Assembly (NCBI RefSeq): GCF_964031115.1
Contig: NZ_OZ035006.1
Location: 1,613,605 to 1,677,604, forward strand
Source of the DNA: Spiroplasma endosymbiont of Clivina fossor
GTDB taxonomy: Bacteria; Bacillota_I; Bacilli_A; Mycoplasmatales; Nriv7
DNA length: 64,000 nucleotides
Reading direction: 5' to 3'
Under the pieces are notes generated by a model. That model saw only the letters and a program-made list of their open reading frames with translations, searched no databases and had not been told where the DNA came from. Made by a program: the position numbers and the translations under genes. Positions 2,846 through 57,500 of the stretch are shown here, piece by piece. Position 1 is the stretch's first letter. Each line of letters opens with the position of its first letter.

Positions 2846-3066
2846 TATTTTTTATCCGCGTTATTGTTTTTTGAATTAGGAGCTTTAACTCATTCTTCAA
2901 AGCGAGCAATAAATACTTTTTCGTCTTTTGTAAAATTACCAGTATTACTTTTAATGGCATTTTTATATTTAATTCGCATTTTTATTTTGGCATAAATTTT
3001 ATAAGCAAAATATGCCAATAGCATTATGCAAATGATAATAAATATTATTCCAATCGCAATATTCAT
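2845..3066 (-). CDS. Plectroviral membrane protein, 73 aa
   Basis: N-terminal hydrophobic segment (residues 2-24) then a basic cytoplasmic-type tail with the motif F.K.EK.FIA.F. Related proteins are at 10186-10440 (84 aa) and 43756-43980 (74 aa). It starts 3 bases after the 108-residue gene and overlaps the next gene at its stop. The role is not known. Confidence 0.62.
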
Positions 3067-3068
3067 TT

Positions 3069-3395
3069 TTAAACTCCTTTAAAATAGTTATAATTTATAT
3101 CTTTTTTGTTGTTTTCTTTTTCGGCAATGAAGAAGCCTAATAATTCTTGGCCTTTAATTAACTTGGTTTCTTGCTCTTGTTGATTAATTGAAATTACTTG
3201 ATATTTACTATCTTTTATTATTCCGATGCAAATTGAATTTTCATATTTTCCTTTATAAACAAATCGCTTTGGAAACCAAATACCGATTTGTTCACTAAAT
3301 CACGGAATTTTTGGGGCTTTAATAAGCATTGCGTTTTGTGTTTCTTTTAAGAGATATTTCTTAGTATTTAAGAAAATGTTTTCAATGTTTTTCAT
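3069..3395 (-). CDS. Plectroviral conserved protein, 108 aa
   Basis: Soluble-looking protein beginning MKNIENIFLNTKKYLLKETQ, with the block WFPKRFVYKGKYENSICIGI. It is a close relative of the 109-residue protein at 9487-9816. Both are the first gene after a region of repeated TAACTTAGTT motifs, so it is probably the first gene of the viral operon. An AGAGG Shine-Dalgarno lies 8 bases upstream. Function unknown; an early regulatory or replication protein is possible from position only. Confidence 0.65.
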
Positions 3396-3419
3396 AATAA
3401 ATTACCTCTCTTATAAATA

Positions 3420-3457
3420 AACTAAGTTATATTAACTAAGTTGTTAGTTAACTTAGT
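3420..3457. promoter_or_regulatory. Repeated AACTAAGTT motifs upstream of viral operon
   Basis: Three copies of AACTAAGTT or its reverse complement lie in under 40 bases, two direct and one inverted. They are immediately upstream of the viral operon that starts at 3395. The same motif clusters upstream of the related gene at 9487. This looks like an operator or iteron set. Confidence 0.5.
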
Positions 3458-3913: not shown

Positions 3914-4249
3914 GGTCGCGTTTAGTTTTCTTAGGTATTTTTTTAAAAAAGAAAAAATAATCATTTACTATAAATTATTTCAATATGCAAATTAAGTATA
4001 TATTTCTTATGTATGATTTTTTTTTATTTTATCAAGAGTTTTCGACAAAATTAAAATAAAAAATTATTTTAATGTTGTTTTTATAAGCATTTTACTTAGT
4101 TTCTATAGAATTTTATTGAGATTATGTTTGTTAATATTAAATATTTTGTTTTATTACTTATTTTTCAAATAAAACGATAATTAAATTGTAGTTACTTTTC
4201 TTTCAAAATTAATCAAATATTTTTCCACCTAACAAAACTTTACGCGTCC
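3914..4249. mobile_element. MITE-like element, copy a (336 bp)
   Basis: Bounded by imperfect inverted ends GGTCGCGTTTAGTTTTCTTA and, at the other side, the complement of GGACGCGTAAAGTTTTGTTA. It has no coding capacity. The element at 31222-31522 has the same ends and interior. This copy is 35 bases longer because it holds a lone IS1595-type end. Its right edge sits exactly where the ORF3-type transposase gene is broken. Confidence 0.5.
4015..4056 (+). mobile_element. Lone right end of the IS1595-like element
   Basis: Reads TTATTTTATCAAGAGTTTTC and on to the element terminus ATTAAAA. It matches the last roughly 40 bases of complete copies such as 62776-63921. No other part of the element is present. 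The related MITE at 31222 lacks it. It is a scar of deletion or aberrant transposition. Confidence 0.75.
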
Positions 4250-4893
4250 GCGTGCATTTCGTCAATGAAATCATAAATGTAATATTTTTTATCAACCGGA
4301 AAATTTGTTGTAGTAATAATTTTGGCATCCATTTGCAAAAGACCAATTTCGGAGACTTCATAACGCTTAAAATGGCGTTTTGTTTGTTTGATTTGTTGTT
4401 TTAATTCTTTTCAACGAGGGTCGGATTTAATTCAGCGATAAAAAGTTTTAATGTTTTTAGGAACTTCTGAATTTTTGACATCGTGAAAACTCATTTTTAA
4501 ATTGTTAAATAAAGACCACATTCCACCGGCTTGAATATTTCTATAATCAAAATATAAATCACATACTTTTTCACGAGAATTTAAACTATACTGATAACTA
4601 ATTTTGTTAGGTTTTGTATATTTAAAAATTAAACTATTAAAATCATCACTTTGATAAGCAGTAAGAATTTTATTAGCTCATTGATAAAATGTATTTCGTG
4701 TACCGTGAAAATGCTTTTTTACTAATTTATTTAAAGTTATTGGTTCTAAATAAAATTGATTACATAAATTCAAATAACTAATAACTCGTTTTTTAGTTTT
4801 GTAATAGTGTTTGTGGTTATAAATTGTTGTTAATCAACTCTGGATTTTTGCTTTTAAATCTGCTAAATCAGCTTGGGAAATAATATATTTCAT
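4250..4893 (-). pseudogene. SpV1 ORF3-type transposase, truncated
   Basis: Start codon at 4891-4893 (MKYIISQADLADLKAKI). The N-terminal two-thirds match the intact copy at 32922-34004, including the first catalytic region LLQMDAKIITT. The gene is cut by the MITE-like edge at 4249 just after DFIDE, so the second Asp and the Glu of the DDE triad are missing. No function expected. Confidence 0.8.
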
Positions 4894-4962: not shown

Positions 4963-5468
4963 CTAATTTTTATTAGGCATTTCGGCAGAGAATGAGGTAA
5001 TTATATAACCGGCACGCCTATCATACCTGTCTAAAGCTGAAGTTTTTAAAATTGTAATCTTTACATTAACAATTTTATCAATATAATATTTATCATATTC
5101 ACCATTAACATTAATAATTCTAGTCATATTTTTTTATAAAAATTAAAAACATAACCTGACATACTACCACGTTCAGGAATTGTAAGAGCAGAAACATCTT
5201 GAGGCAAATCATCTAATTTATCATCAGTATTTCAAACAAAACCAAGAGCAGGTCATTTAAAAATATAACTATTTTGAATACTAGCAAACTCCAACTTACA
5301 ACCATTATCACATTGACTAGGATTTGTGGCTCGTTTTTCTCGCTTTATAAAAGATTGTTCCATACTAGGTTTTGGTGGTTGTTTTGTATCAAAGAAGGCA
5401 CCTAGAGGGACTAAACCAATAAAAGCGATAACTTTTTTATATTATAACCACGACATAAATTTATACAT
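4963..5468 (-). pseudogene. ORF1/lipoprotein hybrid of plectrovirus (third domain allele)
   Basis: The start is that of the viral attachment protein (MYKFMSWL, then VIAFIGLVPLGAFFDTKQPP). It is followed by a variable domain unlike the two alleles at 34-40 kb, starting CKLEFASIQNSYIFKWPALG. The tail SFSAEMPNKN is the tail type of the lipoprotein at 34075-34606, not of ORF1. Two frame disruptions are visible, one after MYKFMSWL and one near 5128. The conserved ORF1 body of about 450 residues is absent. It looks like a recombinant between an ORF1 and its downstream lipoprotein gene. Confidence 0.65.
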
Positions 5469-5492: not shown

Positions 5493-5738
5493 TTAACTTC
5501 TTAAAATAAAGTATATTGTTGATAAAATGCCAATTGTTCCAAGAATAATAAAAATTGGATGTTGAGAAAATAACCTAATCATTGGTTTAAATAATTGTAA
5601 AAATTCACTGTTAGTCACAATAACTTTATTAAAATATTCCAACCCTTCATTTACAAAACGCCATAAACCAAGAAATTCATCAAAAGCAAAGATAGAAAAA
5701 ACGGTAATTAAAAGAAAAATTATAACTAGTTTAAACAT
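5493..5738 (-). CDS. Plectroviral small membrane protein, 81 aa
   Basis: Nearly identical to 40462-40707 and related to 453-701. Two hydrophobic segments flank the motif FKPMIRLFSQHPIF. It lies between the 77-residue membrane protein and the ORF1-type gene, the same order as in the fuller virus at 38-46 kb. The start overlaps the stop of the upstream gene. Confidence 0.65.
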   Translation of the reverse strand: MFKLVIIFLLITVFSIFAFDEFLGLWRFVNEGLEYFNKVIVTNSEFLQLFKPMIRLFSQHPIFIILGTIGILSTIYFILRS

Positions 5739-5971
5739 TATTTCTCACCTCACTCTTTAACAGATTTGTTAGTTCTTGCCTTTCTATAACTTTCTTTGGC
5801 TTGCATTCCAATACCTAAAATAGCAACAAAGACAAAGTTAGCAATTAAAGAGATTAAAGGAATAATGATAATCCGAATTCCGGTGCCAGGAATAGTCATA
5901 CTTCAAATTAAATCAAAAACTTTATAAATAAAATCAGCAAAGAATGATGCCATTTTTTCTAAATTTGCCAT
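5738..5971 (-). CDS. Plectroviral minor membrane protein, 77 aa
   Basis: Begins MANLEKMASFFADFIYKVFD, with a central hydrophobic segment and a basic tail ending KEWGEK. It nearly equals the copy at 40707-40940 and is a shorter relative of the protein at 704-1024. It normally follows the Zot-like gene, but here a MITE-like insertion lies between them. Confidence 0.65.
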
Positions 5972-6021: not shown

Positions 6022-6150
6022 CTAGTAGCGAGAATTTTGAAAGAAGATAATTGCAATGATAATTACAATAACAACTAAAGATGTTTTCCTAAAACTTTTA
6101 AGGGCGTTGGGAAAACATAGATAAAGTAGTATAAAATTTCTTAGTAGCAT
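6022..6150 (-). CDS. Possible small membrane peptide, 42 aa
   Basis: ATG at 6148-6150, ending QNSRY at a TAG within the inverted repeat. The C-terminal half is strongly hydrophobic (VVIVIIIAIIFF). It lies inside the MITE-like insertion and no other copy is seen here. It may be only a chance frame. Confidence 0.25.
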   Translation of the reverse strand: MLLRNFILLYLCFPNALKSFRKTSLVVIVIIIAIIFFQNSRY

Positions 6151-6208
6151 TTTTTATCGTTTTAATTCATCTAATTTACAAACTTTTTAGAAAATAAACA
6201 AATATAAT

Positions 6209-7276
6209 AGACTTCTTGCAAAATTAATTTAAAATATAATTGAATTGTTGTTTTTAATAAAAAGGTGGAATTTAAATGAAATTTAAAAAAAATAATCAAA
6301 TAAGTGATAAAAATTTTTTAAGATTAACTGGTATTAAACATACTACTTTTAATAAAATGCTAGAAATTTTAAAAATAGAAGAATTAAAAAAGAGATTTCG
6401 TCGCGGAAGAACCAATAAATTATCATTAGAAAATCGTATTTTAATGACTTTAGAATATTGAAGAGAATATAGAACTTATTTTCATATTGCAAAAAGTTAT
6501 GATATTAGTGAAAGTAGTTGTTATAGAAATATCAAATGAATTGAAGACACTTTAATAAAACACCCTAATTTTCAACAACTTACTGGTCAAAAATCACTAT
6601 TAAAAGATTATTTCAAAGATAAGACTGTTATAATTGATGTAACTGAAAGCCAAATCCAACGCCCAAAAAAAGACAAAAACAGCACTACTCAGGAAAAAAG
6701 AAAAAACACACAATAAAAACACAAGTTATAATTGAAAAAGATAGTAAAAAAATTATTAGTTCTGATTTTTCTTATGGTAAAAACCATGACTTTAAAATTT
6801 TAAAAGATTCAAAAATTAAATTTTTACCAGAAACAACTGTTTTAGTGGATTTAGGTTATCAAGGCATACAAAAAATTAATCATAATGTTTTAATTCCTAA
6901 AAGAAAATCAAAGAAAAACCCTTTAAATAAAGAAGAAAAGCAAAATAATGAGCGAATTTCAAAAATGAGAATTGTTATTGAAAATGTTTTTGCTATACTT
7001 AAAAAATTTAAAATTATTAGTGAAAAATATCGAAATCGTAGAAAAAGATTTGCTTTAAGATTTAATTTAATAGCTTCAATTTATAATTTACAACTATTAG
7101 TTTAAATATATTTGATAATTTAAAATTTCAGTCTTTTTTTATTGTAAATAATAATTTTTATTATGTTTTAATGACAAAATATTTGTAAAAATAATCTAAA
7201 AATTATTTTAATAACACTTTTATATTTATTTTAAATTTAAAAATTATAATTATCATATTAATTTTGCAAGAAGTCT
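6209..7276 (+). mobile_element. IS5-A copy A (IS5 family, ISL2-like), 1068 bp
   Basis: The ends are AGACTTCTTGCAAAATTAAT and its complement. The 3-bp repeat AAT flanks the element at 6206-6208 and 7277-7279. An ANT target duplication is typical of the ISL2 subgroup of IS5. This copy is inserted in a MITE-like element of the viral segment. Confidence 0.9.
6276..7105 (+). CDS. IS5-A transposase (frameshifted OrfA-OrfB)
   Basis: The first frame opens MKFKKNNQISDKN with a helix-turn-helix-like N-terminus and stops at a TAA after KRKNTQ. A -1 slip on the run of seven A near residue 131 joins it to the second frame, giving YSGKKKKHTIKTQ, the usual IS5 core. The fused product is 276 residues with catalytic candidates D121, D192 and E236 (IENVF). 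TGA is read as Trp (LEYWREY). All nine copies keep the same shift site and stop, so this is programmed frameshifting rather than decay. An AAAGGTGG Shine-Dalgarno precedes the start. Confidence 0.85.
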
Positions 7277-34074: not shown

Positions 34075-34606
34075 CTAATTTTTATTAGGCATTTTGACAG
34101 AAAAGGATGTTATAACTCGGTTCTGATAATAATTTTGATTAGGCAATGGTTGCGGTTGCTCGTTATCCTTTTTGGGTAAAAGCAGGAGAAGCAAACATTA
34201 ATTCTAATCAATCATATTGTCAATCAGCTCCCATGCCCATCTCACTTGTTCCAATATTATAAGTATGAATTTTACCTTTAATACTAACTGCATCAACTTT
34301 ACCTAATTTTGTTAAATCATAATCACCAGTCAATAAATCACTAACAGTTTTTTCCGTAAACCGAAAAGATGGATATCAAGTAATACCATTAATCATATTC
34401 TCTGGTAAATTTTTTAACTCACTTTTATTAAAATTTGAAAACCCAACAAGATTTCTTTTAGAATTATTACCTTGTCAATTAATAGTTGCCTTAGATAAAG
34501 AAAATTCATAAATTTTATTTTTAACAAACTGAAAATCATTGCTTCTACAAGCAAAAGTAAACACCACAATTACTAAACTTAACACTGATAAACTTTTTTT
34601 TAACAT
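34075..34606 (-). CDS. Plectroviral lipoprotein I carrying the ORF1 variable domain
   Basis: Starts MLKKSLSVLSLVIVVFTFAC, a lipoprotein signal with Cys20 as the likely lipid site. Residues 31-141 (KIYEFSLSKATINWQGNN to LMFASP) repeat residues 50-160 of the ORF1 protein encoded just upstream (34663-36525); over about 325 bases I see one difference. The frame stops at 34163 after 147 residues (AFTQKG). A -1 shift there would extend it to SFSVKMPNKN at 34075, the tail kept at 4963. It has a GGAGG-type Shine-Dalgarno. A role in superinfection exclusion is inferred. Confidence 0.7.
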
Positions 34607-34662
34607 AATTAAAAATCCTCCTTTCAAAGAGATTATATTATACTAAGAATATTAAAAATATT

Positions 34663-36525
34663 TTAAGAGAACTTTTTAATTAACATTAATAAAATTGCTA
34701 AGGGCACTACAAACTCAAATAGCATTTGAAATGCCGGAATAACTTCAAACACCGGAAAGGCAGTTTTGGTAAAATTAATCGTTGTTTTGGCAATATCCGC
34801 AAGCGGGCGAATTAAAAGATTAATCCCAGAAAGACCAAGTAATCAATTTAACACACTAACAGAAGCGTGCTGAATGCCACAAGATATTGCACTAAATAAG
34901 CCCCAATAAGAACAGTTGGGCGTAGGAATTAAATCATCGGTATTACCATTTATTCCACCACCAATAAAAGCTGTTGAATTCAAAATGTTAAAATCGTATA
35001 AAGAATAATGATATTTAGTACTTTCATTTTTCTTTTTATATAGTGGAAAAGTTAGCGTAAAAATATTAATTCCATACATCACATCAACTTTGGCATTGTA
35101 AAAATACAATTTATTACTAGTAGTGTTTCATAATTGGTTATCATATGCTTTTAACACATTAAAATCTACTTGATAAGAACTTTTGCCAGTATTAAAACCA
35201 TTGGCGATTTGTTTATCTTTAACAAAAAAATAGGAACGAAAAATCATATTTTTACTATTTTCGATTGTTGAACCAAAATTAATTAAATATTGTTTGGGAT
35301 AAAAAGTAATTAAGGAACGATAGAAAAAACCCATTTGTAAAACATTTTTAGGAATTTGTTGCGTCCCTTTGTAATCTAATTCTACATAAGTAGAAGCATC
35401 CATATCAAAACTCGCATAAAAGAATTGTACAAAAAACTCACCTAAAACTTTATAAATTTTATTAAATAAACCATTAATAAAATCAATAGTTAAATCTTTT
35501 TGATAATGAAGCATAAAATCTTTAAAATCAAATTTTAATTTGTCATCATAGCGTAAAAAATGGAAGGTATTACCATAATAATTAACTTGTCCAAAAAAGG
35601 TATTAATAAAATCTCCTCCAAAACTTGTTCGCGAACCAGATTTTCAAAGCGATTTACCATTTTCTAAAAACTCATTACTACCCACAATGCTACCATGCTC
35701 AGTTTTTATAGTAATAACATCACCAAAACTGGAAAAGGAAAGTTCTCTAAAAATAACTTTTTCAATGAAACCAGGCAGATATGAATTTTTGCGACTTAAA
35801 CTAAATTTACTATTTTGTTTAAAACCATTTAATTTAATTGAAATTTCACTCATATATTTAAAATTATCGTCAAAGAAATTAAAAATCGGAACTCAATATA
35901 AATAACTATAATTAAATTTATCAAAATCTCGCCGTTGTATCATTAAATAGTCTAATTTATCTTGAAACTGAGTATAATCATACTTGCCATCATTTTTAGT
36001 TATTTCCGTAGGTAATGGTTGCTCGTTATGTTTTTCAGGCAGAGGAGGAGAAGCAAACATTAATTCTAATCAATCATATTGTCAATCAGCTCCCATGCCC
36101 ATCTCACTTGTTCCAATATTATAAGTATGAATTTTACCTTTAATACTAACTGCATCAACTTTACCTAATTTTGTTAAATCATAATCACCAGTCAGTAAAT
36201 CACTAACAGTTTTTTCCGTAAACCGAAAAGATGGATATCAAGTAATACCATTAATCATATTCTCTGGTAAATTTTTTAACTCACTTTTATTAAAATTTGA
36301 AAACCCAACAAGATTTCTTTTAGAATTATTACCTTGTCAATTAATAGTTGCCTTAGATAAAGAAAATTCATAAATTTTACCATTACTAGAATTTGTGGCT
36401 CGTTTTTGTCGTTTCATAAAGGAATGTTCCATATTAGGTTTTAGTGGTTGTTTTGTATCAAAGAACGCCCCTAACGGCACCAAACCAATAAACATTATAA
36501 TAAATCAAGAAATAATTTTATCCAT
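34663..36525 (-). CDS. Plectroviral ORF1-type attachment/minor coat protein, allele I
   Basis: A 620-residue protein, open throughout with code 4. The N-terminal hydrophobic segment (residues 5-23, SWFIIMFIGLVPLGAFF) acts as signal or anchor. Residues 50-160 are the allele-specific domain. Residues from about 175 to the end are conserved with allele II, including NTFFGQVNYYGNTFHFLRYD and FYASFDMDASTYVELDYKG. A C-terminal hydrophobic segment ends AILLMLIKKFS. The two-anchor layout with a variable outer domain resembles the adsorption protein (pIII) of filamentous phages; the function is inferred. The upstream viral genes are missing and replaced by IS5-A and an IS3 fragment. Confidence 0.72.
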
Positions 36526-38122: not shown

Positions 38123-38548
38123 TTAACTAAACTTTTTTGCCGAGAAAAAAATTAAGGAATAAGGGCTTAAGTTTCTTAATTTAATCACAACATCAACTAC
38201 TTTTGGAATAGTATAAATTTTTTTACTACCCATAGATTGAAAGGTTCCATATTTTTGAAAAAAATCTTTTATAGGCAGGAAAGCTTGACTATCCATAAAA
38301 AAAGGCAAACGATTGGGATAATTTTTATTTTGATTTTTGACATCATTAGGTAATTCAATATCAAATTTAGATAAATCAAAATAAGCACCAGAATCAACAA
38401 CAAGAGTAATATTTAATAAACTAGCAAATTTTAACTCACAACTATTATTGCAAATACTATCTTTTTTTAGTTTAGGAACATCTACTTTACTACACCCAAA
38501 AATAAACATTACACATACTAAATTTAAAGCTAATAAAAATTTTCGCAT
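38123..38548 (-). CDS. Plectroviral lipoprotein II carrying the ORF1 variable domain
   Basis: A 141-residue protein starting MRKFLLALNLVCVMFIFGCS, a lipoprotein signal with Cys19 as lipid site. A GGAGG Shine-Dalgarno precedes this ATG; the in-frame ATG at 38569 lies within it and is less likely. Residues 37-138 (CELKFASLLNITLVVDSGAY to SLIFFSA) repeat residues 54-154 of the ORF1 protein directly upstream (38605-40437), with only a few changes. The reading frame is intact. It should sit on the host membrane outer face. A block to infection by viruses of the same allele is inferred. Confidence 0.75.
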   Translation of the reverse strand: MRKFLLALNLVCVMFIFGCSKVDVPKLKKDSICNNSCELKFASLLNITLVVDSGAYFDLSKFDIELPNDVKNQNKNYPNRLPFFMDSQAFLPIKDFFQKYGTFQSMGSKKIYTIPKVVDVVIKLRNLSPYSLIFFSAKKFS

Positions 38549-38604
38549 AAAGAAAAATCCTCCTTTCAAAGGAATTATATTCTATATAAAAATATTGGAA
38601 ATAT

Positions 38605-40437
38605 TTAAGAGAATTTTTTAATTATTATTAATAAAATTGCTAGGGGAATTAAAAACTCAAAAAGATATTTAAATGCCGGAACAACTTCAAACACCGGAAA
38701 GGCAGTTTTGGTAAAATTAATTGTTGTTTTAGCAATGTCGGCAATAGGGCGAATTAAAAGATTAATCCCAGAAAGACCAAGTAATCAGTTCAACATACTA
38801 ACAGAAGCGTGCTGAATGCCACAAGATACTGCACTAAATAAACCCCAATAAGAACAATTAGGCGTAGGAATTAAATCATCCATATTACCGCTTATTCCAC
38901 CGCCGATAAAAGCTGTTGAATTCAAAATATTAAAATCATATAAAGAATAATGATATTCAGTGCTTTCATTTTGTTTTTTATATAGTGGGAAAGTTAGCGT
39001 AAAAATATTAATTCCATACATCACATCAACTTTGGCATTGTAAAAATGCAGTTTATTACTAGTGGCATTCCATAATTGGTTATCATATGCTTTTAAAACA
39101 TTAAAATCTATTTGATAAGAATTTTTACGGGTGTTAAAACCATTGATAATTTGTTTATCTTTAACAAAAAAATAGGAACGAAAAATCATATTCTTACTAT
39201 TTTCTACTGTTGAACCAAAGTTAATTAAATACTGTTTAGGATAAAAAGTAATTAAGGAACGATAGAAAAACCCCATTTGTAAAACATTTTTAGGAATTTG
39301 TTGCATTCCTTTGTAATCTAATTCTACATAAGTAGAAGCATCCATATCAAAACTCGCATAAAAGAATTGTGTAAAAAAACCACCTAAAACTTTATAAATT
39401 TTATTAAATAAACTGAAATAATATTCACTTGTCAAATCTTTTAAATAAAAAAACATAAAATCTTTAAAATCAATCTTTAATTTATCATCATAACGTAGAA
39501 AATGAAAAGTATTATCATAATAATTAATTTGTCCAAAAAAAACATTAATAAAATCTTCAGTTCAACCTTTCTTTCAAATAAACTTAATTAATTGTTTATC
39601 ATTTTCATAAAAAGTAACCATTCCTAAAGAAATTTCAATTCTAAAAACATTACCAAAACTAGAAAATTCTAAACTATCAAAAAAATATAGCGAGTTTTCA
39701 GGTTCAAAACTACGAATTAAAGTAAATTTACTATTCTGTTTAAAACCATTTAATTTAATTGACATTTCACTCATATATTTAAAATTATCATCAAAGAAAT
39801 TAAAAATTGGGACTCAATATAAATAGCTATAATTAAATTTATCAAAATCTCGGCGTTGTATCATTAAATAATCTAGCTTATCTCGAAACTGATTATACTG
39901 ATATTCGCCATCACTTTTAGTTATCTCAGTAGGTAATGGTTGCTCTGCTTCTTTTTCTGGTAAAAGAGGCATTTGTGCCGAGAAAAAAATTAAGGAATAA
40001 GGGCTTAAGTTTATTAATTTAATCACAACATCAACTACTTTTGGAATAGTATAAATTTTTTTACTACCCATAGATTGAAAGGTTCCATATTTTTGAAAAA
40101 AATCTTTTATAAGCAGGAAAACTTGACTATCCATAAAAAAAGGCAAACGATTGGGATAATTTTTATTTTGATTTTTGACATCATTAGGTAATTCAATATC
40201 AAATTTAGATAAATCAAAATAAGCACCAGAATCAACAACAAGAGTAATATTTAATAAACTAGCAAATTTTAACTCACAACTTTCACCACATTGGCTAGGG
40301 TTTGTGGCTCGTTTTTTTCGCTTCATAAAAAATTGTTCCATATTAGGTTTTGGTGGTTGTTTTGTATCAAAGAAGGCACCTAGAGGGACTAAACCAATAA
40401 AAGCGATAACTAATAACCACGACATAAATTTATACAT
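38605..40437 (-). CDS. Plectroviral ORF1-type attachment/minor coat protein, allele II
   Basis: A 610-residue protein from MYKFMSWLLVIAFIGLVPLG to LLIIIKKFS, intact with code 4. The first 50 residues resemble allele I. Residues 54-154 form a domain with no resemblance to that of allele I. From about residue 170 the two proteins align closely again to the C-terminal membrane segment. It lies between the 81-residue membrane gene and lipoprotein II. Adsorption to the host is the likely role of the variable part; the conserved part would anchor it in the virion. Confidence 0.75.
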
Positions 40438-45883: not shown

Positions 45884-47550
45884 TATTTTTTAACTCCTTT
45901 AATTTTTTTCTTTCATTTTTAAAACTCGTTTGGATTTAGTTATTCATATAAATTTCCCACATCTAATATATTTATAAAAATTAAGCTTTTAATAGCTTTT
46001 CACAAAATTTAAAAGTTCTGTTAATTAAATTTAATTTCTAATAAACTAGTATCAATTTCTGTAATAAATCTTGAAGGTAAACAGTAATTATTAGCTATAT
46101 AAGAAAACCCTTTACTATAACTTAAAAATAATCCTTTTTTTGCTCTTGTAATCGCAACATATAAAACCCTTCGTTCTTCTTCAATAGCAGTAATTCCTTC
46201 TTCAATACTTAAAGTATTAGGAAAAACACCTTCATTTAAACCAATAACAAATACAAAATCATATTCTAATCCTTTAGCATTATGAATTGTCATCAAACTA
46301 ACTTTATCTTGAACAACAGAATTTTCATCTTGGTCAACATATAAACTAACTTCTTGTAAATAATGTTGTAATAATTCTATTCCTTGTAATGAATCATAAT
46401 TTTGCAAATCATAATTTTCCATATGATTAAATAATTCTTTAACATTTTCTAAGCGTTCTCCTTCAAAACCATCCACTAATTGTTGTAAGTAAGTACCATT
46501 ATTTAAAAAATCTTGAGCTAAACAAGTTATTTTTTCATATGACTTTAGTTTTTCTTTTCAAACTTTTAAATATGTAACTAATTTAACTATTGATGGTTTT
46601 AAACTAGAAACATTTACCATTAAATATTTTAAAAGCGATTGCTCGCTATTTTGTGATTGTTCAATTAAATTGTTAATTGTTGTTATCCCCACACCTTTAA
46701 TTAAATTCAAAATTCGTATTATTGATAATTCATCACCATAAACTAAAGTTTTTAAGTAAGCTAAAACATCCTTAATTTCTTTTCTTTCAAAAAACTTAAA
46801 AGCACCATAAATACGATAATTAATATAATTATTAATTAATGCCGTTTCTAAATGATGAGAAAGATGATTAGCACGATAAAGAATTAAAATATTTTTTAAT
46901 AAAATATTTTTTTCAACTAACTTTTTAATTTCTTTAATTACCCAATTAGCCTCGCAAATACTAGTATTACCACAATATAGTTTTATCTTGTTACCGCGGT
47001 TATTCATTGCAAATAAATCTTTAGCAATTCGTGAATGATTATAACTAATAAGAATATTTGCAACATCTAAAATATTTTGTATTGAACGATAATTTTGATT
47101 AAGAATAAAAGTTTTCGCATTAGGAAAATAATTATTAAAATCTAAAATTAATCTTGCTTTTGCCCCTCGAAAAGAATAAATTGTTTGGTCAGGGTCACCA
47201 ACAACAGTAATATTTTGATGTATTTTTACTAAATAATTAATTAATTGAAACTGTAATTCATTAGTATCTTGAAATTCATCAACCAAAACATAAGAAAATT
47301 GTTTCTGTCACTTTTGTAGTACTTCTGAATGCTGAGAAAATAATTTCAAAGTTAATATTAATAAATCATCAAAATCAACCATATTATTTTTAGACAAATA
47401 TTGTAAATAAATCTTATAGATTTCTAATCATTGTTGCTTATATTCATAATAAAAGGCGTTATTAATAACATCACAATAAGATAATTGGTTATTCTTTAAA
47501 TAAGAAATCATACTACTAACTTTTTTAATTTCATTATTATCAAAATTATA

Positions 47551-48695
47551 TTTTAATTTTGTCGAAAACTCTTGATAAAATAAAAAAAATCATCAACTTG
47601 ATAATTTTAAAAGGCTTTTATGTAAAATTACTATTTTTACTTTAACTTTTTTATACATTAAAATATAATACCGCTGTTTGTTGGTTTGGAGTTAAACCCT
47701 TATGTTGGTATTTTCATTTTCAGAGATTTAAATAATTTTGAATATTAGTAAAACCTAAACCATGATAATGAATTAAGGCTTCTTTAAGACTAGATTGTAA
47801 TTTACTGATTTTATTTAAGTTACGATAACTAGCTTCAGGATTAATTGTTGTTTTAGTTACACATAAAGTAGAATTTGTTTGTTTTGCTACTAAAAAATAT
47901 AATTTTTGCATATCAGAAGTAATAATTGAATTTTCGTTAATTAATTCTTTGTTCATATTTTCAATAACTCATTGTTTTTGTAAACGTTTGGTGTTTGTGG
48001 ATTTAACATAAATATTGTTATTATTATCAATTGCCATTTGAATACAGCATTTAGTATTAGTTGCGAATGGGTCAAGGTGAATTCTTCGTGGATCAGTTTT
48101 ATATTTGAAATTTCCTTTATGGATTTCTTTAATGAATGTTTCATCGATTTGGATTTTACCAGATAATTTTTTAAATTTTAATTGGGTATTTTCTAATTGT
48201 TTTGATTTCATTAATTTTTGACGATTATATCAAGCAGTTTTTAATGTAGTTTTAATAAAACGAGAAATTGTTTTACTAGATTGCCCCAGCAATGAAATTT
48301 GAATCAATAAATTTCATTGTTCATAATTTAAATGACTTCAATAAATAAAATGATTACGAAAAGCGTCAAAACTTGCACGGCAATTTTTACATAAATATTT
48401 TTGTTTTCCTTCTGAATTATGTCCATTTTTAACGCAATGGTAAGATTCACATTTAGGGCATTTAATACCTTGCGCTCTAAATTTTTGATCAATTTCATTT
48501 AACCGTTTTTGTTTTTTTATTAATTCTGCTTGTTGTTTGACTTTTTCATAAAATTCTAAAAATTGATCATCTGTTAAAGTATTTACTAGTTCTTGAATTA
48601 TTTTTTCCATAATTATTATCCACCTCTATCATATTAAAATATACCTAAAATTAAGTATATTCAATAAATATCAAGAGTTTTCGACAAAATTAAAA
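47551..48695 (-). mobile_element. IS1595-like element copy 6, inside pcrA
   Basis: Length 1145 bp with perfect outer ends. The 8-bp duplication AAATTATA is at 47543-47550 and 48696-48703. The clean joint shows a simple, recent insertion. Confidence 0.92.
47651..48610 (-). CDS. IS1595-like transposase, intact
   Basis: A 319-residue protein, open with code 4. The zinc ribbon has Cys at 51, 54, 74 and 77 (CPKCESYHC and CKNC). The DDE-type core begins QIDETFI (D156), with a second Asp in ITSDMQKLY (D233). A C-terminal block SSLKEALIHYHGLGFT resembles the ISXO2-like domain. The zinc ribbon plus 8-bp duplications fit the IS1595 family; exact subgroup unknown. The Shine-Dalgarno is AGAGGTGG. Confidence 0.82.
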
Positions 48696-49102
48696 AAATT
48701 ATATTGCTTATTTTTACTAATATTTTTTAAAATATTGATTTTATCAACAGTATCAATGATAATAAAATCTTTTGTATATCCTAAAACCATAATATCTCTT
48801 CTTAAAACCCTAACACAAAAAGCATGATATGTATGGATTCATATATATTTAGATTCATCATTACCAACTAATTCATTTAATCGACTTTTCATTTCATTAG
48901 TTGCCTTATTAGTAAAAGTTACCGCTAAAATTTGACTACTATTAATGGCCAAATTATGAATTAAATGAGCAATTTTATAAATAATAACTCTTGTTTTGCC
49001 ACTTCCTGCACCAGCTATAATTCTATTAGCACCTTCACTACTTAAAACAGCTAATCTTTGCTTCTCGTTTAAATGTTTTAAATTTATAACTTCTTTCAAA
49101 AT

Positions 49103-49997: not shown

Positions 49998-50600
49998 AAA
50001 AAATCATATCTTTTATCACTTAACCCCCGACCTTCAATAACTACCGCTCCAAATTCAATAATTTCATCATAACGACTGGACAATCCTGTTGTTTCAATAT
50101 CAAAAATAACAAACTTACAAGCATTAATCGCATCACTAGTAGCATTAGTAATCGCTTCTTTAACACACTACTATCAATCATTTGCATTTCCACACCATAA
50201 ATTAACCTTAACAGTAGGATATTTCTTTTGAGCCATTTGCGCATCAGGAAATGATTGAACATTTAAATGATCAATAATCGCAATTGCTGAATGTTTTCAA
50301 AGACTTGCTTGTTTAATATATTCACCAATACTTGTAACCCCATCCATCGCACTCATTTTTGTATGCAAATGAAATTCAATCCGCTTTTCTAGCATATCAT
50401 CAGTTCGTAAATGCGGATCAGCAATCTTTTGAATTTTATTTACTCACAAAACTTGTTCACGAGAAAAATTATCAAACCGCACATCACCTTTAACAACAAC
50501 TCAATCCTTTTCTTGTAATTCTTCTAAAAGCTTGTCTTTCATATCATCACTTGTAAAATATCGTAAGGCAATCGCATCACTAAAATCACTAATTAATATT

Positions 50601-53413: not shown

Positions 53414-54364
53414 TTAAATTGTTGAAAAGCTCTGGATTAACATAAAAAATCCAGTAAATATTAATACCAATGACAAACTATCAATCCGATCCAAAAATCC
53501 TCCGTGACCTGGTAAACCCTGAGAAAAATCTTTTACATTATGATTCCGTTTAATAAATGAAAAAAGTAAATCACCCATATGACTTATTAATGACAAAAAT
53601 AAAATTAACAAGAAATAAATTACATATTTATAATCATCTGTTTTCGTTGTAAAAAAGTTAGCAAATGGCTGATACTTCGTAAACTCCGTTAATAACACAA
53701 TATATCCTAAAACAAGTACCCAGGTTACTAAAATACCAATAATCGCCCCTTCTCATGTTTTACTAGGACTAATTTTTGGAGCAAGAGCATTTTTGCCAAC
53801 TAATGTTCCGCCAATATAAGCAAATGTATCATTACTAATAGTAATTAATAAAACCACACTAACTGATGGTCAACCAAACCCTGGTTGAAGCATAATATAA
53901 TTCATTGCTTTAAAAGCAAATACTAAATAAAGTGTCATACAAAATATAAATAATGCATCATTAGCACTAAACTTCTTAAAAACTTTCACCATTAGTAAAA
54001 TAACTAACAAAAATGTCATATAAACTAATAATACCATTCATGATTGTCATCACTGAATCCGAGTTGGACCATCATACTTATTTCAATACGGTTCATACTT
54101 AATATTCTCTGCTATGGGAAACCATAATAATATAATTGCAAAAACAAAAATAATAGCTTTAATAACCCAATTAAAACTTTCTCCTTTCCTTAAATTCATC
54201 ACCTCAAAAATTGTAATCCCTAATAACATACTATTAACTATTAAAAATGCATATGGCATATATCAAACATTAAAACCTCTTCACTCTTGATATATCGCCC
54301 CAACAAATAAATATAAAATTGCAAAAGAAATTAAAAAGATACTAGTAATAATTCGCTTTTTCAT
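53414..54364 (-). CDS. cdsA: Phosphatidate cytidylyltransferase, second copy
   Basis: 316 residues, same length and frame as 58948-59898. It makes CDP-diacylglycerol for phospholipid synthesis in the membrane. Multiple hydrophobic segments are present, and the C-terminal signature ([20 protein letters not shown]) is intact. One notable change is Gly for Val in DFSQGLPGHGG. It lies directly upstream of the broken second polC and downstream of the intact polC, as the second unit of a tandem duplication. Confidence 0.85.
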
Positions 54365-54520
54365 TTAATCACTCCTTCTATCAATATTAACTAATTATAA
54401 CTGATAATTAAATTGAAAAAATAAAATCGCATTTTTAAAAAACTAAACTACCGATTTTAGATACAATTTTAATAAAAGAAAAGCAACAAAAACTTTTGTT
54501 TAGCATATTACACAGAAAAA

Positions 54521-54542
54521 GTAAAACCTTAATAGGTTTTAC
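54521..54542. terminator. Terminator after polC
   Basis: Stem GTAAAACCT / AGGTTTTAC with a 4-base loop, between the polC stop at 54577 and the second cdsA. Confidence 0.65.
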
Positions 54543-54576
54543 TTAACTCTTAACTAATTCATTTTTTCACTTTTAA

Positions 54577-57500
54577 CTATTCAAAAAAGTTCAAAGATAT
54601 TTGATCAAATTTATCTAAACCTGATAGCATACCCATCTCCTCAAATTCCTTTAAATGCGTTTTGGTAATACTAGTCCTCTTTTGTAAATCTTCTAACGAA
54701 GCAATCGCTCTTTCCGTTCTCGCTTCAACAATTGAATTAGCAACAGTACTACCCAAACCATCTAATGCTGATAATGGCGGAACAATCTTTTTAACACCAG
54801 CAAACTCTTGAACAACAAAATTTGTTGCTAGAGAATGTTCTAAATTAATACCAATAAATTCAATTTTGCGAGCATACATTTCTAACGCTACTTCCAACAC
54901 TGGTACTAAATCCTTCTCCTTTTGAGTTAACTTATTAACAACATTATAACCATTATCCATTCGTGATAAGATATCGGTTAATTTTGTTAAAACAGCATTC
55001 CTTCCCTTAGCAATCGTCTTAATATCAAAAACATCACATCGTGTTGAAAAATAAGTCGCATAATATTCGTGCGGATAATTAATTTTATACCAAGCAATTC
55101 GCAAAGCCATTAAAACATAAGCTGTCGCATGTGCCTTAGGAAACATATACTTAATTTTTTGACACGATGCAATATATCATTGGGGAACATTATGACTAAT
55201 CATAATTTTTTGTTGCTCATCAGTGACACCCTTTCCTTTACGAACCGTTTCCATAATGTTAAAAGCAATATCTGACGGAATTTCACGATGAATTAAATAA
55301 GTCATAATATCATCACGACAACCAATAACATCTTTTAATTTTAAATCTTGATGGGTAATTAATGTTTGGGCATTATTTACTCACACATCAGTACCATGCG
55401 ATAAACCAGAAATTTGCACTAAATCAGCAAAACTCGTCGGATTTGTTTCTTCTAACATTTTACGAACAAATTGAGTACCAAACTCAGGTAAACCCACCGC
55501 TCCAGTTTTTTCATTATTAATATCACTACTAGTAATCTTCATAATTTCTGGGGAACTAAATAATGAAAGTACTTCGGCATCATTACACAAAATATTTTGC
55601 GGATCATATCCAGTAAGGTCATGTAGCATTTTTAATGCTGTGGGATCAACATGCCCCAAAATATCTAACTTTAACAAGTTATCATGAATAGCATGAAAAT
55701 CAAAATGCGTTGTTTTTCACTGCGAAGTAATATCATCGGCTGGGAAATTTACTGGCGTAAAATCATTAACATCATAATTCTTAGGAACAACAATAATTCC
55801 CCCCGGATGTTGTCCGGTTGTTCGTTTAACACCCTCACATCCTTGTGCTAATCATTCTAAATATGCTTTTTTAACAAAATGATTACCTTTCACATCTTCC
55901 AAATAACCACGAGCATAACCAAATGCTGTTTTTTGTGCCACGGTAGAAATTGTTCCCGCCCGAAACACATTATCCGCACCAAACATCTCTTTAGTAAAAT
56001 TATGAGCAATCATTTGATACTCACCAGAAAAATTCAAATCAATATCGGGTACTTTATCACCATCAAAACCTAAAAAGGTTTCAAACGGAATATCTTGACC
56101 ATCACCAGTTAAAAGATGACGACATTGCGGACAATTTTTTGGTGGTAGATCATAACCACTACGAATATTTTCATCACTCACAAATTCACTATATTGACAT
56201 TGCGAACACACATAATGTGGCACTAATGGATTTACTTCGGTAATCTTCGCCATCGTTGCAACTAATGACGACCCCACAGAACCACGAGAACCAACCAAAT
56301 AACCATCATTTAATGACCTTGTAACTAATAAATGAGCAATTCAATAAACAACCCCAAAACCATGCTTTAAAATCGCATCTAACTCCCGCGATAATCTTTC
56401 TTCTACCATTATTGGCAATACTGCACCATAAATCTTTTTCGCGTTATCATAACATAATCTTTTCAAATTACTATCAACATCACCATCATCAATTACTGAA
56501 GTATACAAATCATCTTTAATCGGTCGCAATCACGAAATTTGTTCATTTAAATAATTAGGATTAATAACAACCAATTCCTTAATTAAAACTTCATCTTCTA
56601 AAAAACTAAACTCATTTAACATTTCAGCAGTCGTTCTTAAATGTTGCTCAGGATTATTTTTAACCCGACCTTTACGGTCAAATAAAGGATGCATCCTTCC
56701 TCCTAAACCCTTAGTATTAATATATACATCACGAAAAATCTTATCTTGCGGATTTAAATAATGAGTATCAGAAGAAGCAATAACCACCTTATTAAGCTTC
56801 TTTGCAGTATGAACAATATTTTTTACAATCCGCATTAAATGTTCAACTGTCATCTCACCACTTTCAACTAAATGATTGTAAACACTTAGCGGTTGTACTT
56901 CAATATAATCATAAAATTGCATTATTGCTTCCAATTCTTGTTGACTCCGATTACGAGCAAACTCAAAAACCTGACCATTAACACAACCAGAACCAATAAA
57001 AACATTAGCGCGCATTTCTTGCAATGCCGCAATCGTAATTTTAGGACTACTATAAAAGTACTTAGTATGCGACAACGAAACTAACGAAAATAAATCTTTC
57101 AATCCTTGCTCATTTTTAGCAATTACTGTTGTATGATTACCAAATAGCTTGGCAAAAATTGGTTCATAATTAATCTTTTCAATATCTAATAATGTTTTTA
57201 CTTGATAATTATCTTCTAAATCCGTTAACATCACGGCAAATACATCAGCTAATATTTCAGCATCATAATCAGCACGATGAGCAATTTCTTCATTATACTT
57301 AATATTATATTTTCTAGCAACCGTTCCTAAACGATGATAGCGTAACTGTTGTTGCAATAATCGTGATAATTGCAAAGTATCAATAATCGGATTAGTAAGT
57401 TTTCCATAACCCATTTGATTTCACAGTTCTTGAATAAAACCAATATCAAATGATGCATTATGAGCCACAAGAACAGCATCCTGTAAAACTTCTTTAATCT

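What the first reader, a model, noticed from the sequence alone, without database searches (positions are those of the whole stretch)
4963..5468. Third domain allele preserved as an ORF1/lipoprotein recombinant
The gene starts like ORF1 (MYKFMSWL, GLVPLGAFFDTKQPP), carries a third unrelated variable domain, and ends like lipoprotein I (SFSAEMPNKN). The 450-residue ORF1 body is missing. Recombination between the duplicated domains of an ORF1 and its lipoprotein would give exactly this. It supports the idea that the domain pair is a general feature of these viruses.
Basis: partly seen in the sequence, partly recalled or inferred. Interest (0 to 1): 0.72.

Follow-up and report, generated by a model that had tools for sequence, protein, structure and literature searches.

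The report
Collapsed twin-domain gene in spiroplasma virus
A broken viral gene in a spiroplasma chromosome is what remains after two copies of one protein domain, one in a virus's attachment protein and one in its surface lipoprotein, recombined and deleted everything between them, and related virus genomes show that such matched domain pairs are the rule in these viruses, perhaps so that an infected cell refuses the same virus again.

Summary
Window 5468-4963 (minus strand) starts as a plectrovirus ORF1 (attachment protein), runs through one variable domain (5288-4977), ends in a lipoprotein tail and continues into the viral transposase. It is a pseudogene: a 12-nt insertion gives TAA at codon 9 and a 1-nt deletion in an A-run shifts the frame. 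The recombination reading holds. The same genome has an intact lipoprotein with this domain. A second species has a full virus with the domain in both ORF1 and lipoprotein, as sharply bounded direct repeats of about 312 bp, 1,850 bp apart. Three further hybrids, each with a different domain allele, show that the deletion recurs; one is intact. The pair is general: in 46 of 47 non-redundant ORF1-lipoprotein loci from five genomes the lipoprotein carries its own ORF1's allele (4.2 expected, maximum 14 in 20,000 permutations), at 93-99.7% DNA identity. Published isolates SkV1 and C74 carry the pair inverted, beside a lipoprotein gene their records do not annotate. 'Unrelated domain' is overstated: this allele belongs to a larger family. 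Most likely function, untested: allele-specific superinfection exclusion by a cell-surface copy of the virion's receptor-binding domain. The hybrid itself is ordinary; the pairing is the interesting part.

The parts
4963..5468 (-). Hybrid pseudogene: ORF1 leader + variable domain D3 + lipoprotein tail
5289..5468 (-). ORF1 leader (signal segment, RxKR-containing linker)
   Evidence: 77% aa identity to the window's intact ORF1; 94% DNA identity to L090 upstream and leader
5442..5444 (-). TAA stop at codon 9, inside a 12-nt insertion absent from the other D3 ORF1 leaders
4977..5288 (-). D3 domain, shared by ORF1 and lipoprotein in complete viruses
   Evidence: 95% DNA identity to the intact D3 lipoprotein of the same genome; block boundaries
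5129..5136 (-). Approximate position of the A-run (7 instead of 8 A) that shifts the frame within D3
4963..4976 (-). Lipoprotein-type tail and stop
   Evidence: Matches lipoprotein copies, not ORF1 copies,
4240..4893 (-). 5' part of the viral transposase (ORF3-like), truncated; lies directly after lipoprotein genes in complete elements
5493..5971 (-). Two small viral genes upstream of ORF1 (5738-5971 and 5493-5753), part of the same remnant
   Evidence: 94% to element L053 over window 6017-5285
34666..36525 (-). Intact ORF1, domain allele A (620 aa)
34163..34627 (-). Lipoprotein with domain allele A (96.5% aa identity over 115 aa to its ORF1)
38608..40437 (-). Intact ORF1, domain allele B (610 aa)
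38123..38569 (-). Lipoprotein with domain allele B (93.5% aa identity over 108 aa to its ORF1)

Best explanation
The locus is the remnant of an integrated spiroplasma plectrovirus. In the intact virus, ORF1 (attachment protein) and the next gene (a surface lipoprotein) each carried a near-identical copy of domain D3, lying as direct repeats of about 312 bp, some 1.85 kb apart. Recombination or slippage between the repeats deleted the ORF1 body and the lipoprotein leader and left leader-D3-tail. The remnant also has a 12-nt insertion with a stop and a 1-nt frameshift, so it should make no product (shown by sequence). Why the virus keeps the pair is inferred: the ORF1 copy sits near the N-terminus, after the signal segment and before the body, where it would bind the host receptor; the lipoprotein shows the same domain on the surface of the infected, wall-less cell, where it would occupy or shield that receptor and block re-entry of viruses with the same allele (superinfection exclusion). 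The confidence below is for the origin of the hybrid; for superinfection exclusion as the pair's function I give about 0.45.
For: Origin: ORF1-type sequence to the domain start and lipoprotein-type sequence after it, with no ORF1 body and no lipoprotein leader; an intact D3 lipoprotein in the same genome downstream of an ORF1 remnant; a complete D3 virus in another genome with repeats exactly 1,850 bp apart and 90-100% identical in the 50-nt steps up to 300 nt, flanks 24-40%; three other hybrids with other alleles. Pairing: 46 of 46 measured pairs carry the same allele, expected 4.2, maximum 14 in 20,000 permutations; 27 alleles at 70% aa identity. Copies within an element differ little (dS 0.03 with ends trimmed, dN/dS 0.41) while the same allele in two different elements differs by dS 0.25-0.44 in the two divergent cases. 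The lipoproteins begin with a lipobox. Pairing persists with the lipoprotein inverted in SkV1 and C74 and in L121. SVTS2 gene 1 is the adhesion protein CoaA (PMC8295915). Ff phages gain superinfection immunity because resident pIII saturates the receptor TolA (PMC7070036). C74 was isolated although its lipoprotein frame is broken, as expected of a dispensable function.
Against: Inter-element recombination cannot be excluded, since several elements share alleles. No experiment supports receptor binding or exclusion. In R8A2B the lipoprotein and ORF1 domains are only 38% identical, so matching is not absolute. The D3 domain model resembles no known receptor-binding fold. Published SVTS2 resistance tied to integrated viral DNA (cited in PMC8140453) concerns a virus in which I found no lipoprotein pair.
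Confidence: 0.85

Rival explanations
1. The hybrid is an assembly artefact: the two repeats of a complete element were collapsed by the assembler.
For: Direct repeats of about 312 bp at 90-100% identity are a classic collapse risk; one other hybrid (L169) is intact.
Against: The window's hybrid carries its own lesions (12-nt insertion, 1-nt deletion) and substitutions on both sides of the junction, and hybrids occur in two assemblies. A collapse would copy an intact parent. The window's genome is one 2.05-Mb contig.
Confidence: 0.05
2. The short form is a functional alternative gene that makes a secreted free domain, kept on purpose; the D3 copy is merely a dead member.
For: L169 keeps an open 169-aa frame with leader, domain and tail, followed by a transposase gene.
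Against: Three of four hybrids are broken; all four lack the body and lipoprotein leader exactly as a deletion would leave them; no complete virus with the short form was seen.
Confidence: 0.07
3. For the pair: the lipoprotein is an assembly or egress partner; matched domains bind each other and hold ORF1 at the budding site.
For: Allele matching would also follow from self-binding.
Against: C74 is an isolated virus with a frameshifted lipoprotein and R8A2B has a poorly matched one, so the lipoprotein seems dispensable.
Confidence: 0.15
4. For the pair: the second copy is mainly a recombination template that lets the virus swap or repair its receptor-binding domain, and the lipoprotein is secondary.
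For: Copies are homogenised within elements; inverted repeats in SkV1 and C74 would allow exchange without loss.
Against: The second copies sit in open reading frames with a lipobox and, in L090, a ribosome-binding site, under purifying constraint (dN/dS 0.41); a template would not need this.
Confidence: 0.15

Closest known systems
Plectroviridae ORF1 / CoaA adhesion protein (SpV1 R8A2B, C74, SkV1CR23x)
   Same: ORF1 of the window's elements is a remote homologue of SpV1 ORF1 (C-terminal half, E about 4e-6); in both, the variable domain precedes a similar LPT..KN.GE stretch and the body; SkV1 and C74 also duplicate the domain beside ORF1.
   Different: In SkV1, C74 and R8A2B the lipoprotein is on the opposite strand and not annotated in the records (C74 and SkV1 only mark repeats); in the window's clade it nearly always follows ORF1 on the same strand.
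Ff phage pIII-mediated superinfection immunity
   Same: Same proposed logic: resident expression of the adsorption domain occupies the receptor.
   Different: Ff uses the adsorption protein itself; here a separate lipoprotein gene carries a second, allele-matched copy. Function not tested here.
Ltp-type superinfection-exclusion lipoproteins (phage TP-J34)
   Same: Phage-encoded lipoprotein of similar length (142 aa) with a lipobox; surface exposure is established for Ltp and expected here.
   Different: No match to any exclusion family in Pfam or NCBIfam; Ltp targets the tape measure protein of tailed phages (reference in PMC3952083), whereas these lipoproteins copy the virus's own attachment domain.

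Membership tests
Plectroviridae attachment protein (ORF1/CoaA) | Sequence homology to ORF1 of isolated spiroplasma plectroviruses | tested here: met
   C74, R8A2B and SkV1 ORF1 vs P0001 over about 284 C-terminal aa, E 7e-7 to 4e-6
Plectroviridae attachment protein (ORF1/CoaA) | N-terminal signal-like segment and C-terminal membrane helices | tested here: met
   Hydrophobic ends in the sequence; helices 2-15 and 545-621 in the model, though model confidence is low
Plectroviridae attachment protein (ORF1/CoaA) | Binds the host cell | not testable with these tools
   Needs an adsorption assay
Bacterial lipoprotein | Signal peptide ending in a lipobox cysteine | tested here: met
   FISGC, FIFGC, PIVGC type motifs in the 27 lipoproteins of the D3 homology group
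Ltp-type superinfection-exclusion lipoprotein | Sequence membership in a known exclusion family | tested here: not met
   No Pfam or NCBIfam match above cut-off
Receptor-occupancy superinfection exclusion (works like) | Expression blocks infection by viruses of the same receptor specificity | not testable with these tools
   Experiment required
Deletion between direct repeats | Left flank of copy 1 and right flank of copy 2 around a single copy, intervening DNA lost | tested here: met

The most novel reading that the evidence does not exclude
Spiroplasma plectroviruses carry a polymorphic, allele-matched pair: a receptor-binding domain in the attachment protein and a near-identical copy in a surface lipoprotein that excludes viruses of the same allele. 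The copies are kept matched by recombination, dozens of alleles are maintained by this exclusion, and the pairing has been rebuilt in both gene orientations.
Probability: 0.4. Interest if true: 0.82.

Novelty: new variant of a known kind. Interest (0 to 1): 0.6.

Why it matters
Most plectrovirus proteins have no known function (PMC8295915). The pairing marks the likely specificity domain of the attachment protein and suggests a function for a lipoprotein that, in the SkV1, C74 and R8A2B records, is not annotated. If exclusion is right, it is a simple, allele-specific barrier that could explain why one spiroplasma chromosome holds many plectrovirus copies with different domains, and it predicts which viruses can infect which carriers. 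A preprint already notes prophage-linked lipoproteins in a tsetse spiroplasma and reads them as host-interaction factors (PMC12408004); this offers another reading.

Tried and rejected
Pfam, PHROGs and NCBIfam gave no family. The D3 domain model (mean pLDDT 77) had no convincing structural match in PDB or BFVD, and the ORF1 model is poor overall (pLDDT 53). Another genus of the same order (g5) had at best one weak match to the SpV1 lipoprotein. Seven ORF1 leaders without a body in G004 looked like further hybrids but are truncations by insertion sequences. My first allele clustering by global DNA identity merged unrelated AT-rich domains and was replaced by protein-based clustering. Among all same-allele quartets, element versus gene clustering is mixed (13 to 13); only the two divergent quartets clearly group by element, so homogenisation rests mainly on uniformly high within-pair identity across 27 alleles.

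Full report
1. The observation. The region at 5468-4963 on the minus strand reads as an ORF1 leader (MYKFMSWL, then GLVPLGAFFDTKQPP and KREKRATNPSQC), a variable domain and the tail SFSAEMPNKN. The reading needs a stop to be passed and the frame to be changed once. Aligned with other copies, the hybrid has a 12-nt insertion containing TAA at codon 9 and one A missing from a run of eight. It is a pseudogene.

2. Its surroundings. Upstream lie two small viral genes and downstream the first part of the viral transposase gene. Window 6017-5285 matches a complete element elsewhere in the chromosome (L053) at 94%, and the stretch from late in the domain into the transposase matches that same element at 89%. 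Both flanks thus fit one type of element. From the domain start into the transposase the DNA also matches, at 88% over 1,045 nt, a locus of the same genome that has an intact D3 lipoprotein downstream of an ORF1 3' remnant.

3. The predicted parent exists. In genome G003 an open ORF1 with D3 (L090 5035-6900) is followed by an open D3 lipoprotein and the transposase. The two copies lie exactly 1,850 bp apart. In 50-nt steps they are 90-100% identical up to 300 nt into the block (75% in the last 24), and the flanks drop to 24-40%. Genome G002 has a decayed version with both copies (L091). G001, which by its contig length is the Spiroplasma endosymbiont of Nebria riversi, has a D3 lipoprotein.

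4. The deletion recurs. Of the ORF1 leaders in five genomes, four lack the body and run from domain to lipoprotein tail and transposase: the window's and L169, L170 and L172 of G002, each with a different domain allele. L170 matches the L058/L110 allele at 92% and L172 the L098 allele at 97%; the L169 allele matched none in my set. L169 is an open frame; the others are broken. Seven other body-less leaders, all in G004, end in insertion sequences and are not hybrids.

5. The pair is general. I took complete ORF1s with a full N-terminus and the next downstream lipoprotein-like frame: 47 non-redundant cases. In 46 the lipoprotein carries the ORF1 domain; in the other (L117) a truncated copy of the same allele remains. 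Measured over the domain the 46 pairs are 93-99.7% identical in DNA (median 97.2% over about 360 nt). By protein they form 27 alleles; every lipoprotein falls with the allele of its own ORF1, against 4.2 expected. Seven more complete ORF1s lacked a listed partner: one has it on the other strand (L121), one lies beyond an insertion (L052), one shows a second copy cut by the end of the locus (L035), one has a lipoprotein leader cut by an insertion (L125), and in three (L149, L159, L160) no copy was found, L149 having an insertion directly after ORF1.

6. Isolated viruses. SkV1CR23x has an open, unannotated lipoprotein on the opposite strand (6042-6506) that repeats its ORF1 domain at 97% DNA identity; its record marks only a repeat region. 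C74 has the same inverted repeat at 95.5%, with the lipoprotein frame broken. R8A2B has an open lipoprotein there with a domain only 38% identical to that of its ORF1. R8A2B and C74 ORF1s are 91% identical overall and differ mainly in this domain. In SVTS2 I found neither a repeat of this kind nor a lipoprotein.

7. Copies stay matched. Within elements dS is 0.03 with ends trimmed and dN/dS 0.41; the same allele in two elements differs by dS 0.25-0.44 in the two divergent cases. This fits gene conversion or repeated re-copying. L121 looks like a recent re-copy: an inverted lipoprotein with another leader and 99% identity to its ORF1.

8. Structure. The D3 lipoprotein model is a compact strand-rich domain with one main helix; the ORF1 model shows the same order of elements at residues 50-160, between a signal-like helix and the body. 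No known fold was matched, and no solved structure by sequence.

9. Function. The ORF1-type protein is described as the adhesion protein in SVTS2 (PMC8295915). A domain near its N-terminus that varies between otherwise similar ORF1s is the natural candidate for receptor specificity (inference). A cell-surface lipoprotein with the same allele would compete for the same receptor (inference), as resident pIII does in Ff phages (PMC7070036). Alternatives are an assembly partner, a recombination template, or a role in the insect host. The broken lipoprotein of C74 and the mismatch in R8A2B suggest that the lipoprotein is dispensable for growth. I give exclusion about 0.45.

10. Verdict. The finding of value is the allele-matched pair. 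Within the papers I could search (about 5.4 million open-access articles) I found no description of it; subscription papers on SpV1 were not available.

Noticed in passing
L181 (X51344) 3042-3455 minus; L183 (EF506570) 6042-6506 minus: Unannotated lipoprotein genes in the published SpV1-R8A2B and SkV1 genomes, convergent with ORF1; in R8A2B the domain does not match that of its ORF1.
   Followed up: partly
L121 3567-4169 minus: In the window's virus clade, a lipoprotein with a different leader on the opposite strand carries a 99% copy of its ORF1's domain: the pair rebuilt in inverted orientation.
   Followed up: partly
L169 4092-4598 plus: Intact 169-aa leader-domain-tail hybrid with a domain allele that matched none in my set, directly before a transposase gene.
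   Followed up: partly
window 46021-49099 minus: A UvrD/PcrA-like helicase gene appears split by an insertion-sequence transposase at 47651-48610.
   Followed up: no
window 53414-59898 minus and 50171-50542 minus: Two near-identical copies of a CdsA-like gene flank a large PolC-like DNA polymerase gene, with a further PolC fragment nearby.
   Followed up: no
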